From Conexibacter arvalis (GTDB lineage: Bacteria > Actinomycetota > Thermoleophilia > Solirubrobacterales > Solirubrobacteraceae): a DNA stretch of 64,000 nt. The stretch lies in assembly GCF_014199525.1 (NCBI RefSeq), contig NZ_JACHNU010000002.1, positions 664,147-728,146 of the forward strand, read 5' to 3'. The number at the start of each line of letters is the position of its first letter. Position 1 is the stretch's first letter. The position numbers and the translations under genes are program-made. Below are positions 43,830 to 48,360 of this stretch, piece after piece. Under the pieces are notes generated by a model. That model made no database searches, was not told where the DNA came from, and was given only the letters and a program-made list of their open reading frames with translations.

Positions 43830-43980
43830 AAGTCATGTCATCGTCCAGTGTGAGTCCGCGCACGCTTGCGGTTCGAGCGCGCTCCTGCCGACGACAGGGT
43901 TGGACGGCCTTCGGGCGGCCGCGCAAGCGCTGCGGCCCGCGGAGCGGACCGCCTGCCGACGACGAGAGGAGCCCCGAAGA

Positions 43981-46446
43981 ATGGTGAAGAGGACGGCCGC
44001 GGCGCTCGCCGCCGCCATCGGCGCCGCACTGCTGCCGGCGGCGGCGGCGCAGGCGCAGGCGCAACGGCCGCCGATCGATCCCGCCCCGCTGAAGCGGCTC
44101 GCCGCAGACGCGCAGGCAACCCGCGTCGACGCCGCCACCGGCGCCGCCGCGCCGCAGGAGCTGATCGTGCGCTTCGAGCGCGGCGCGACCGCCCGCCAGC
44201 GCGGACTCGCGCGCGACCGCGCCGGCGCCGCGCTGGTCCGCACGCTCGAGCTGCCGCGCACGCAGCTGGTCGCGGTCGACGGCGACCTCGACGCCGCCGT
44301 CGCGCGGGCCGAGCGCCAGCCGGGGGTCGCCTGGGCCGTCCCAAACCGGCGCGCCAGCACGCGCGCGGCGGCGCCGAACGATCCCCGCTTCGGGGAGCTG
44401 TGGGGCCTCCACAACACCGGCCAGAGCGCGACCGACCTGTACGGCAATCACCTCGACGGGTCGCCGGGCGCCGACGTCAACGTGCTCGACGCGTGGGACG
44501 TCACGCGCGGCGCCGGCCAGGTCGTCGCCGTCGTCGACACCGGCGTCGACATGGGACACCCCGACATCGCGCCCAACCTCTGGACCAACCCGGGCGAGAT
44601 CGCCGGCAACGGGATCGACGACGACGGCAACGGCTTCGTCGACGACGTCCACGGCTGGGACTTCGCCCAGCTCGGCCCGATCGGCACCGCCGTCCCCGAC
44701 GACGACCCCGACGACTTCGACGGCCACGGCACGCACGTCGCCGGCACGGTCGCGGCGGCGGCCGGCAACGGCATCGGCGTCGCCGGCGTCGCGCCGGAGG
44801 CGAAGGTGATGCCGGTGCGCGTGCTCGACGCGACCGGCTCGGGCACGTGGGCCGCGATCTTCGACGGGATCCGCTACGCCGCCGAGAACGGCGCGACGGT
44901 CATCAACCTCAGCCTCGGCGGGCCGCTGGAGGATCCGAGCGAGCTGGTCGCGTGGACCGAGGTGTTCGACGACGCCGGTGCCCGCGGGGCGGTCATCGTC
45001 GGCGCCGCCGGCAACGACGCCATCGACGTCGACGAGGTCGGCGACCTCCCCTGCTCGGTGCCGAGCGACCACCTCGTCTGCGTCGCCGCGCTCGACGCCA
45101 CCGGCAAGCTCGACCCCGACTACTCCAACTACGGCGCCGAGAGCGTCGACGTCGGCGCGCCCGGCACCGGCGTCGTCAGCTCGGTCGCGCCCTCGGTTGT
45201 CACGTTCGCGGAGGACTTCACGGACCTGTCGCGCTGGGCGGGCACGCCTGGCTGGGGCGTCGAGACGATCGGCACGCTCCGTCACCTGTCCGACAGCCCG
45301 GGCGGCCCGTACGCGCGCGGCGCCTCCTCGTTCGCGTTCGCGGACCCCGACCTCGCGGGCACCGGCACCTTCGGCTGCTCGTTCTCGTTCGGCTTCCGCG
45401 TCGACGTCGCGACCGGAGACCTGGCGGCCGTCGGGCTGATCGACCGGCCGGCGACCGACCCGGAGTGGAGATTCCTCGCGGCGATCGCCGTGGACCGCGG
45501 CAGCACCGGCGCCGCGACGATCCCGTGGGCGCTCTCGCTCGAAGCGTTCCCCGGGCAGCCCGCGCACGCGCTGGCCGCCGTCGTCGACGAGGAGGATGAC
45601 GGGCAGCAGGGCGACGGCCTCAAGGTCGCGCGCATGCGGTCCCACTGCCGCACCGACGACCGCGCGGCCGCACCCGAGTACGCCACCTACAGCGGCACCT
45701 CGATGGCGGCGCCGCACGTCTCCGGCGTCGCGGCGCTGGTGCGCGCGGCGGCGCCGTGGGCGACGCCGGACGAGGTCGCAGCGGCGATCAAGGCCGGCAC
45801 CGTCCCGACCGCCTCGCTCGCCGGCAGGACCGTCACGGGCGGCCGCGTCGACGCGGCCGCCGCGATCGCGGCGGCGCCGGCGAGACCGGGCGACCCCGGC
45901 GGCGATCCGGGCGATCCCGGCGATCCAGGCGGCCCCGGCGATCCAGGCGGCCCCGGCGATCCAGGCGGCCCCGGCGACCCGGGCGGCCCCGGCAACCCGG
46001 GCGGCCCCGGCAACCCGGGCGGCCCCGGCAACCCGGGCGATCCCGGCAGCGACCCGGGCGGCGGCCCGACCGATCCGGGCGGCCCGACCGACCCCGGCGG
46101 CCCGGTCGACCCGGCTCCGCGGACCGATCCGCCGCTCGTGAGACCGCGGCCGGGCGCGCCGGCGCGAGCGGCCTGCGCCGGCAAGCGCGGGAGAGCGCTC
46201 GCGGCGTGCAAGCTGAACCAGCGCATCATGAAGGCGTGCGGCGCCAAGAAGGGCAGACGGAAGACGCTCTGCGCCAAGCGCATCCGCGCGGTCGCCCGCT
46301 GCGAGGCGCTGCCGAAGCGCGGCAAGAAGGCGAAGGCGAAGCGCGCCGCCTGCATGAAGAAGGCGAAGGCGATCGGCAAGCCGAAGGGCAAGGCCAAGCC
46401 GCAGGGCAAGGCCAAGCCGCGGGCCAAGGCCAAGCCGAAGCGTTGA
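43981..46446 (+). CDS. secreted subtilisin-like serine protease with collagen-like and Lys-rich tail
   Basis: This S8 peptidase of 821 residues has a signal peptide (1-25, cut near AQA), an I9-type inhibitor prodomain (about 55-120), and a catalytic triad of Asp186 ([12 protein letters not shown]), His249 (DGHGTHVAG) and Ser574 ([11 protein letters not shown]). An extra domain of about 150 residues (about 400-560, [14 protein letters not shown]) is inserted between the oxyanion Asn and Ser574. After residue 635 a collagen-like run of G-D-P/G-G-P/G-N-P triplets spans about 65 residues. A Cys/Lys/Arg-rich domain with [19 protein letters not shown] at the end closes the protein, perhaps binding cell-wall polymer or nucleic acid. 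Confidence 0.93.
45889..46110. repeat. collagen-like triplet repeat in the subtilase gene
   Basis: A run of Gly-Xaa-Pro / Gly-Asp-Pro codons. Near-identical 18-base units (GGCCCCGGCGATCCAGGC type) recur from about 45925 to 46040. Confidence 0.85.
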
Positions 46447-47162: not shown

Positions 47163-47948
47163 TCAGCCGGCGAGCTCGTCGAGCGTCCGGCCGCTGAGGA
47201 CCGACTCCGGGCGCTCGGCGACGACGTCGGAGCCGGGGCGGGCGTCGCCGTCGCGGCGCTTGACCAGCAGCCACTGCTGGCGGCCCGATCTGTCGGCGCG
47301 GGTGCGCTGGAGCGCGAAGCCGCCGCGCAGCTTCTCGCCGTGGAGCACGAAGACGGCGTGGCCGCGCGCGAGCGCCTCCGGCCACGGGACGCGGCCGCCC
47401 TGCTCGTAGCCGCCGCGGTCCCAGACGATCGCGTGGCCGTCGCCGAGCGGCCCCTCGGCCTCGTCGCCGTCGAGCGGGTGGTCGGGGACCTCGATCGCCA
47501 TCCGCTTCGCCGCCGGGTCGAGCGACGGCCCCTTCGGCAGCGCCCACGAGCGCATCACGCCGTCGACCTCCAGCCGCAGGTCCCAGTGGCGCGATCTCGC
47601 CTGGTGCTCCTTCACGACGAAGCGGCCGGCGACGACGCCGCGGATCGCGAACTGCTCGTGGCCCTCGGCTCTGACGGCGTCGGCGGCGACGTCGTCGACG
47701 CGGGCGCCGGGCGGCCCTTCGCGCAGGAAGCCGAGCAGCCGCTCGACCGCCTCGGCGGGCCCCTCGGCGTGGACGAGCACCGTCGCGCCGTCGTCGTCGC
47801 CCGCGACCGGGCGACGGACCCAGCCGAGCACGCCCAGCTCGCGCGCCCGCGCGACGGTCGCGTCGCGGAAGCCGACCTCCTGCACCTGCCCGCGCACGGT
47901 CGCGCGGACCGCGCGCTCCGGCTTCGCTCTGCGCGCCGTCGCGCCCAT
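47163..47948 (-). CDS. acylphosphatase-like / LigD 3'-phosphoesterase fusion
   Basis: This 261-residue protein joins two known folds. Residues 12-100 match acylphosphatase (VRGQVQEVGFRDATVARARE, then GWVRR). The catalytic Arg of VGFR is kept, but the usual Asn of GWVRN is Arg here, so acylphosphatase activity is doubtful. Residues 103-240 match the 3'-phosphoesterase domain of bacterial LigD (FVVKEHQARSRHWDLRLEVD, SWALPKGPS, VWDRGGYEQ), with the metal-binding His and Asp residues in place. The role may be 3'-end cleaning in DNA repair, with the first domain used for binding. No Ku or ligase gene is in the window. Confidence 0.88.
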   Translation of the reverse strand: MGATARRAKPERAVRATVRGQVQEVGFRDATVARARELGVLGWVRRPVAGDDDGATVLVHAEGPAEAVERLLGFLREGPPGARVDDVAADAVRAEGHEQFAIRGVVAGRFVVKEHQARSRHWDLRLEVDGVMRSWALPKGPSLDPAAKRMAIEVPDHPLDGDEAEGPLGDGHAIVWDRGGYEQGGRVPWPEALARGHAVFVLHGEKLRGGFALQRTRADRSGRQQWLLVKRRDGDARPGSDVVAERPESVLSGRTLDELAG

Positions 47949-48117: not shown

Positions 48118-48360
48118 ATGGACTGCCTCTACTGCAACTACATAGACATCTCCGAGACGGCCGTCGGCGTCTGCCGCTGCGGCGCCGGACTCTGCCGTCA
48201 GCACCTCACCGAGCAGCTCGCCTCCCGTGACGAGCTGCGGACGATCGGCTCGGTCACCCGCACGATCCAGCGCGGCCCGACCGAGCGGCGCCTGCTCTGC
48301 CCCGCCTGCGCCGCCACCGACGGCGCCCGCACCGCGCGGGCGCTCAACGTCGTCGACTGA
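48118..48360 (+). CDS. DUF2180 small zinc-ribbon-like protein
   Basis: This 80-residue protein has four cysteine pairs or close ligands (CLYCNY, VCRCGAGLCRQHL, LLCPACA), as in DUF2180. It is probably a metal-binding protein, with Cys and His making one or two zinc sites. Function is unknown. It is convergent with the sulfotransferase-like gene, with a 28-base palindrome between. Confidence 0.8.
   Translation: MDCLYCNYIDISETAVGVCRCGAGLCRQHLTEQLASRDELRTIGSVTRTIQRGPTERRLLCPACAATDGARTARALNVVD

What the first reader, a model, noticed from the sequence alone, without database searches (positions are those of the whole stretch)
47163..47948. Acylphosphatase-like domain fused to a LigD 3'-phosphoesterase
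The acylphosphatase half keeps the Arg but replaces the catalytic Asn of GWVRN with Arg. An acylphosphatase fold tied to DNA end processing would be an unusual reuse of that domain, perhaps as a nucleic-acid or phosphate sensor.
Basis: partly seen in the sequence, partly recalled or inferred. Interest (0 to 1): 0.5.

Follow-up and report, generated by a model that had tools for sequence, protein, structure and literature searches.

The report
Acylphosphatase fused to DNA-end phosphoesterase
In one group of soil actinobacteria a small phosphate-cutting enzyme (acylphosphatase) has been joined to a DNA-end-trimming domain, and the copy looked at here seems to have lost the key residue of its first half because the cell also carries an ordinary stand-alone version of that enzyme.

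Summary
ORF 47163-47948 (-), 261 aa, is an acylphosphatase (AcP) domain followed by a LigD-type 3'-phosphoesterase (PE) domain, both over Pfam's cut-offs and well modelled. The AcP keeps Arg28 but has Arg46 where Asn is catalytic. I found no description of this fusion; 67 distinct members come, where origin was resolved, from the window's own order.

The sensor interpretation is not supported. Forty of 67 members keep both AcP residues. Stand-alone AcP genes occur in 1 of 28 genomes whose fused AcP is intact and 20 of 21 where it is lost (p 1.5e-11); further genomes gave 0 of 12 and 7 of 9. A correlated-evolution test agrees (p 1.4e-8); the strict independent-pairs test has too few pairs. So the AcP half looks like a working enzyme that decays when redundant, as in the window.

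PE residues are lost in 15 of 67, and 7 have lost both sites. A family signature (H97-E98-Q99; E182-QGGRV-x-WP190; R195) is 66-67 of 67 at each position. Interdomain clamp or third function is the open question.

The parts
47163..47948 (-). Fusion gene, 261 aa: acylphosphatase domain + LigD-type 3'-phosphoesterase domain
   Evidence: single ORF, two Pfam domains over cut-off, AlphaFold2 mean pLDDT 93.9, pTM 0.81
47637..47918 (-). Acylphosphatase domain (residues 11-104)
   Evidence: Pfam PF00708; model residues 10-104 align to P. horikoshii AcP 1w2i 2-91, Z 18.1, rmsd 0.9, 90 residues; coordinates checked
47865..47867 (-). Arg28, phosphate-binding Arg of acylphosphatases (kept)
   Evidence: Alignment; role in PMC8147672 (passages)
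47877..47879 (-). Glu24, in place of the phosphate-loop Gly of VQGVGFR
   Evidence: Gly in 40 of 67 family members, Glu in 3 of 67
47811..47813 (-). Arg46 (CGC), in place of the catalytic Asn of GWVRN
   Evidence: Asn in 40 of 67 members
47652..47660 (-). His97-Glu98-Gln99, family signature at the domain junction
   Evidence: H97 67/67, E98 67/67, Q99 66/67 in fusions; 0/36, 4/36, 0/36 in stand-alone acylphosphatases of the same order
47250..47633 (-). 3'-phosphoesterase domain (residues 106-233)
   Evidence: Pfam PF13298; model 104-256 aligns to P. aeruginosa LigD PE 3n9b, Z 24.0, rmsd 2.1, 150 residues; coordinates checked
47574..47606 (-). His115, His121, Asp123, Arg125 = His42, His48, Asp50 (Mn2+ site), Arg52 of P. 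aeruginosa LigD PE; all kept
   Evidence: roles in PMC8656161 (passages)
47478..47480 (-). His157 = His84 of P. aeruginosa LigD PE (kept)
47466..47468 (-). Gly161 at the position of the essential Tyr88 of P. aeruginosa LigD PE; His in 42 of 67 family members
47379..47405 (-). E182-Q-G-G-R-V-P-W-P190, family signature in the PE half (residue 188 is the variable one)
   Evidence: 66-67 of 67 in fusions at residues 182-187, 189 and 190; Q183 0/21, G184 0/21, W189 0/16, P190 0/16 in 21 PE rows without an AcP half (18 loci, 3 solved structures)

Best explanation
The gene encodes a two-domain protein that probably arose once, by joining an acylphosphatase (AcP) domain to a LigD-like 3'-phosphoesterase (PE) domain, in the window's order (Solirubrobacterales). 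The typical member is a two-site phosphate-removing protein. Its AcP half hydrolyses acyl phosphates and is the genome's only AcP outside HypF. Its PE half would trim 3'-phosphate or 3'-ribonucleotide DNA ends; in the window's genome it stands beside a separate complete LigD and Ku. The halves are joined directly at the rim of the AcP site. Selection acts on the two sites separately: AcP residues are lost almost only where a stand-alone AcP is present, and PE residues are lost in other lineages. In the window's genome a stand-alone AcP is present, the fused AcP has lost its catalytic Asn and very likely its activity, and the protein is kept for its PE half and/or the conserved joint. Shown: fusion, predicted folds, residue states, distribution in the samples, co-occurrence. 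Inferred: enzyme activities, redundancy as the cause of decay, single origin, role in DNA repair.
For: Both Pfam domains over cut-off; 59 of 67 members match Acylphosphatase and 67 of 67 LigD_N at E 0.01. Confident model with both known folds. Residue states in 67 members: both sites kept 32, PE only 20, AcP only 8, neither 7. Stand-alone AcP genes: 1 of 28 genomes with intact fused AcP, 20 of 21 with lost AcP, Fisher p 1.5e-11 (49 of 50 fusion genomes, the near-copy G064 left out); further set 0 of 12 and 7 of 9, p 3.1e-4; genomes without the fusion about 43 of 101 (hand count). Pagel-type test on 69 tips: LR 42.3, p 1.4e-8, fitted rate of AcP loss 8.3 with a stand-alone AcP and about 0 without. 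The window's sister in the tree, L009 of the same genus (support 99/90), has GWVRN, and its genome's one AcP hit is the fusion itself. Fused AcPs (41 of the 67 were put in) group apart from 45 HypF and 36 stand-alone AcPs. Ku in 50 of 50 fusion genomes and 68 of 101 others (Fisher). Own genome: LigD with PE, ligase and polymerase domains and three Ku hits.
Against: No activity was measured. Strict independent-pairs tests found 2 to 5 supported contrasts and cannot reach significance, though none went the other way. One search used the gene's own tree, rooted at the midpoint; it also fits gain of a stand-alone AcP as faster where the fused AcP is already lost (1.57 against 0.27), so the order of events is not settled. 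AcP is not essential in this group: 44 of 151 genomes, all without the fusion, have no AcP match at all, so being the only AcP need not mean being needed. Three AcP-lost genomes lack a detected stand-alone AcP (G050, G730, G732; completeness 89, 73, 75%); one genome with Arg and Asn kept has one (G079, whose P-loop is altered). No neighbour is conserved. The window's PE half has Gly where Tyr88 is essential in P. aeruginosa LigD, so its PE activity is doubtful. Seven members have lost both sites yet keep the signature, which two independent enzymes alone do not explain.
Confidence: 0.66

Rival explanations
1. The AcP half was reused as a non-catalytic binding module (nucleic-acid, phosphate or regulatory sensor) for the phosphoesterase; the Asn-to-Arg change turns the catalytic pocket into an anion-binding pocket.
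For: In the window Arg28 is kept and Arg46 adds a positive charge at the old catalytic position. Only 1 of 35 strongly conserved AcP columns is changed in the window, so the fold is not crumbling. Arg occurs at the Asn position in 5 of 67 members.
Against: 40 of 67 members keep the full catalytic pair. Where the Asn is lost the replacements are scattered (Pro 7, Arg 5, Ala 3, Val 3, and others) and mean AcP identity is lower (61.7% in the both-intact class, 45.9% in the PE-only class), as in decay. Loss follows presence of a stand-alone AcP.
Confidence: 0.1
2. The constant function is neither enzyme: the two domains together form a rigid body whose signature binds a partner (DNA end, Ku, LigD or another protein). 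The two active sites are optional extras.
For: Seven members have lost both catalytic sites but keep the signature at 95.6% mean pairwise identity; it is 92.9-95.6% in all four classes, while PE-site columns fall to 24-30% and AcP-site columns to 5-19% in the classes that lost them. H97, E98, Q99, Q183, G184, G185, R186, W189, P190 and R195 are absent or rare in the compared proteins without the fusion. A member that lost both sites (L098) is still modelled with both domains (pLDDT 91.2, pTM 0.80).
Against: 60 of 67 members keep at least one catalytic site. No partner is suggested by gene neighbourhood.
Confidence: 0.3
3. The fusion in the window is a decaying gene with no function left.
For: In the window Asn46, Gly24, Gln113 and the residue at the Tyr88 position are all changed. 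Nonsynonymous divergence of its PE half is high relative to synonymous (0.163/0.202 against L009; 0.083/0.673 between L004 and L007).
Against: Full-length frame, third-position G+C 97.7%, Mn2+ ligands kept; 5 of 93 strongly conserved PE columns changed, within the range of both-intact members, 0 to 12. Extreme G+C makes the synonymous estimate unreliable.
Confidence: 0.12

Closest known systems
Acylphosphatase family (PF00708; e.g. Pyrococcus horikoshii AcP, PDB 1w2i)
   Same: Same fold in the model (Z 18.1, rmsd 0.9 over 90 residues); Arg kept; in 40 of 67 family members the Asn too
   Different: Continues directly into a PE domain; H97-E98-Q99 at the junction; the window member lacks the catalytic Asn and the P-loop Gly
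LigD 3'-phosphoesterase domain (PF13298; P. aeruginosa LigD PE, PDB 3n9b; archaeal PEs 3p43, 3p4h, 5dmp)
   Same: Same fold in the model (Z 24.0 to 3n9b); Mn2+ ligands His-His-Asp, Arg52 and His84 equivalents kept in the window
   Different: Not attached to ligase or polymerase; AcP domain in front; Tyr88 position mostly His (42 of 67); the stretch after it (IPQGHYGAG in 3n9b) is shortened; own signature EQGGRVPWP
HypF hydrogenase-maturation protein (N-terminal AcP domain)
   Same: Another protein with an N-terminal AcP domain
   Different: HypF frames run on for about 400 more residues with a Cys-rich motif where not cut by the fetched stretch; fused AcPs group apart from HypF AcPs

Membership tests
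Acylphosphatase (PF00708) | Sequence match over the curated cut-off | tested here: met
   64.8 bits against 22.5
Acylphosphatase (PF00708) | AcP fold | tested here: met
   Predicted model: Z 18.1 to 1w2i, 90 residues, rmsd 0.9
Acylphosphatase (PF00708) | Phosphate-binding Arg | tested here: met
   Arg28
Acylphosphatase (PF00708) | Catalytic Asn of GWVRN | tested here: not met
   Arg46 in the window; Asn in 40 of 67 family members
Acylphosphatase (PF00708) | Hydrolysis of acyl phosphates | not testable with these tools
   Needs an enzyme assay
LigD 3'-phosphoesterase (PF13298) | Sequence match over the curated cut-off | tested here: met
   105.4 bits against 31.1; NCBIfam's stricter TIGR02777 is just missed, 135.1 against 144
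LigD 3'-phosphoesterase (PF13298) | Mn2+ ligands His42, His48, Asp50 and phosphate contacts Arg52, His84 | tested here: met
   H115, H121, D123, R125, H157
LigD 3'-phosphoesterase (PF13298) | Tyr88 of P. aeruginosa LigD | tested here: not met
   Gly161 in the window; His in 42 of 67; variable also in the 20 other PE rows (Y 9, W 4, H 4, A 3)
DNA ligase D | PE joined to ligase and polymerase domains | tested here: not met
   Only AcP and PE; the genome has a separate LigD with all three
HypF | zinc-finger and YrdC-like domains after the AcP domain (recalled) | tested here: not met
   No such Pfam match at E up to 1
Bacterial NHEJ pathway | Works with Ku and LigD on DNA ends | tested here: inconclusive
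   Ku in 50 of 50 fusion genomes against 68 of 101 others, not corrected for relatedness; no conserved neighbour

The most novel reading that the evidence does not exclude
The AcP-PE body has a third, old and indispensable function carried by its near-invariant signature (H97-E98-Q99, E182-QGGRV-x-WP190, R195) spanning both domains, for example docking on Ku- or LigD-held DNA ends. Both recognisable active sites are dispensable modules that lineages keep or drop according to what else the genome encodes, so members that lost both are dedicated adaptors.
Probability: 0.28. Interest if true: 0.68.

Novelty: new variant of a known kind. Interest (0 to 1): 0.46.

Why it matters
It is a pairing of two well-studied small enzymes that I could not find described. 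From recall, the role of acylphosphatase in bacteria is unsettled; the near mutual exclusion between an intact fused AcP and a stand-alone AcP gives a genetic handle on it, since in 39 of the genomes examined (27, 12) the fusion is the only AcP found outside HypF, and one gene removal would test it. The members that lost both sites ask what else a LigD-type phosphoesterase body can do once catalysis is gone.

Tried and rejected
Gene neighbourhood: ORF clustering over 35 relative loci and the window; of the 25 top clusters printed, none but the gene itself and one cluster of 101 ORFs, mostly frames antisense to it, reached more than 4 loci, and the 4-locus ones are one set of close relatives (L041, L048, L051, L056); several loci have short flanks. 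Plasmids: 495 records match, 0 cover 80% of the query; the 15 rows shown cover the PE half only. PADLOC: no match. Promoter and terminator scan: nothing. NCBIfam: no model of the fusion among the 25 of 31 families shown; the PE model TIGR02777 scores 135.1 against 144, and the acylphosphatase equivalogs are all far below theirs. Phylum pattern scan for the junction: 5 of 396 genomes matched, 3 are the fusion in the own order and 2 chance; the pattern is not fully sensitive, as it missed G092, a fusion genome in the same sample. dN/dS was judged unreliable at 97.7% third-position G+C. Papers: searches returned 0 papers; listings only were seen; PMC7719229 (find) does not mention acylphosphatase. 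Most subscription journals are not held. Rows dropped: L110 (a second, frame-broken copy in G074) was not counted as a fusion, but it and the window genome's own LigD (L001) are among the 20 other PE rows; both were left out of the 21 rows. G064 was left out of the 49-genome table as a near-copy of G038 (it would agree). G708 was left out of the further set because one search did not cover it. G721 (truncated) was left out of the tree tests. In the further set, the signature is Q183R in G751 (the same protein as L057 of the 67) and Q183H in G674.

Full report
What is there. The ORF at 47163-47948 on the minus strand (261 aa) has an acylphosphatase domain (PF00708, residues 15-102, E 8.8e-18) and a LigD 3'-phosphoesterase domain (PF13298, residues 114-215, E 2.2e-30), both over Pfam's cut-offs. 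AlphaFold2 on the 67-row family alignment gives mean pLDDT 93.9 and pTM 0.81. Residues 10-104 superpose on Pyrococcus horikoshii acylphosphatase (1w2i, Z 18.1, rmsd 0.9, 90 residues) and 104-256 on P. aeruginosa LigD PE (3n9b, Z 24.0, rmsd 2.1, 150 residues). The last aligned residue of 1w2i, 91, falls on the family's invariant Gly104. In that enzyme the C-terminal carboxylate of Gly91 contacts the active-site Arg (PMC3057955, passages), so by inference the PE domain starts at the rim of the AcP site.

Residues. Arg and Asn are the phosphate-binding and water-orienting residues of acylphosphatases (PMC8147672, passages). The window keeps Arg28 but has Arg46 for Asn and Glu24 for the P-loop Gly. 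In the PE half the equivalents of His42, His48, Asp50, Arg52 and His84 of P. aeruginosa LigD are kept, while Tyr88, whose mutant is inactive there (PMC8656161, passages), is Gly161 and Gln40 is Lys113. The Tyr88 position is His in 42 of 67 family members; among 20 other PE rows (18 without a detected AcP half, the window genome's LigD and the frame-broken L110) it is Y 9, W 4, H 4, A 3, so it is not rigid in this branch.

Family. 36 loci came from named genome contigs (Conexibacter, Solirubrobacter, Svornostia, many Solirubrobacterales bins, and bins titled Thermoleophilaceae, Actinomycetota, Actinobacteria or just bacterium) and more from unnamed relatives. The order name Solirubrobacterales rests on those titles. 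In a class-wide sample of 299 genomes at E 1e-30, 32 of the 66 listed matches start within the first 10 model positions and all 32 lie in the own order; the rest begin at position 56 or later, most near 104, that is, PE without AcP. Among 396 genomes of the phylum a junction pattern found 3 true cases, all in the own order, 2 chance matches, and missed one known fusion genome, G092. No plasmid record covers 80% of the query.

Independent loss of the two sites. Of 67 members, 32 keep both sites (Arg+Asn; His42, His48, Asp50, His84), 20 keep only PE (the window is one), 8 only AcP and 7 neither. On a tree built without the catalytic columns PE state needs at least 3 changes and AcP state 7. The window's sister is L009 of the same genus (support 99/90), which keeps GWVRN. 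Apart from the Asn, the window departs at none of the other 34 strongly conserved AcP columns, whereas the 19 other AcP-lost members with intact PE depart at 3 to 14 of 35; the loss therefore looks recent.

Why the Asn was lost. I searched 151 relatives for acylphosphatases and sorted the hits in fusion-bearing genomes into stand-alone genes and HypF. Stand-alone genes occur in 1 of 28 genomes whose fusion keeps Arg+Asn and in 20 of 21 whose fusion has lost them (Fisher p 1.5e-11). The exceptions are G079 (Arg+Asn kept but the P-loop altered) and G050 (a bin 89% complete). In genomes of the same sample without the fusion the hand count is 43 of 101, and 44 of the 151 have no AcP match at all, so the enzyme is dispensable in this group. 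A further 21 genomes gave 0 of 12 and 7 of 9 (p 3.1e-4); the two exceptions, G730 and G732, are bins 73 and 75% complete. A Pagel-type model on 69 tips prefers dependent evolution (LR 42.3, p 1.4e-8), with AcP loss fitted at 8.3 when a stand-alone AcP is present and about 0 when it is absent. The same fit has stand-alone AcP gained faster where the fused AcP is already lost (1.57 against 0.27) and no loss of stand-alone AcP where the fused AcP is intact, so which change came first is not settled. Against the test, strict independent pairs gave 5 and, with more tips, 4 supported pairs (3 on a PE-half tree, 2 without the incomplete bins); every informative one agrees in direction but they cannot reach significance, and the tree is the gene's own. 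Fused AcPs (the 40 with both residues, and the window) form a group apart from HypF and stand-alone AcPs, though on 90 columns many forks are open. The window's genome has a stand-alone AcP with intact motifs. I conclude that the AcP half is a working acylphosphatase in most members and decays when redundant. This explains the finding's Arg without a new function.

DNA-repair side. The window's genome has a LigD with PE, ligase and polymerase domains and three Ku hits. Ku is present in 50 of 50 fusion genomes and 68 of 101 others (Fisher 3.4e-7, not corrected for relatedness). PE-lost fusions more often share the genome with another PE outside LigD (4 of 13 against 1 of 36, p 0.014; counted by hand), a weaker echo of the AcP pattern. 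No neighbour is conserved, so a role with Ku/LigD is inferred from the domain, not shown.

What stays constant. Residues kept in at least 65 of 67 fusions but much less common in the compared proteins without the fusion are H60, H97, E98, Q99, G108, E182, Q183, G184, G185, R186, V187, W189, P190, R195, V199 and Q214. Mean pairwise identity at 13 signature positions (97-99, 182-190, 195) is 95.4, 95.2, 92.9 and 95.6% in the both, PE-only, AcP-only and neither classes, while the PE-site columns fall to 24-30% and the AcP-site columns to 5-19% in the classes that lost them. A member that lost both sites, L098, is still modelled with both domains (pLDDT 91.2, pTM 0.80).

Novelty. Searches of the open-access library found no paper on the combination; NCBIfam showed no model of it. 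It is a new architecture of two known families, seen so far in one order.

Noticed in passing
L158 (G095:C4:98048-100293); also G117:C108 and G125:C191: In the three fusion genomes of genus g29 found the stand-alone acylphosphatase gene lies within about 5 kb of the fusion; in G095 it is the tail-to-tail neighbour.
   Followed up: partly
L110 (G074:C915:50025-52381): A second AcP-PE copy in G074, with its AcP and PE parts in different frames; the genome also has an intact-frame copy on another contig (L085).
   Followed up: no
48118-48360 (+): Neighbouring 80-aa cysteine-rich ORF (MDCLYCNYIDISETAVGVCRCGAGLC...) with no Pfam match.
   Followed up: no
43957-46446 (+): Subtilase (Peptidase_S8) whose C-terminus carries a Pro-Gly-Asp/Asn collagen-like repeat followed by a Lys/Arg-rich Ala-Lys-Pro tail.
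   Followed up: no
L111 and L112 (G018 and G052), L109 and L108 (G049 and G035): PE proteins without a detected AcP half that also have shortened or altered stretches after the Tyr88 position; possible near relatives of the fusion's PE half.
   Followed up: partly
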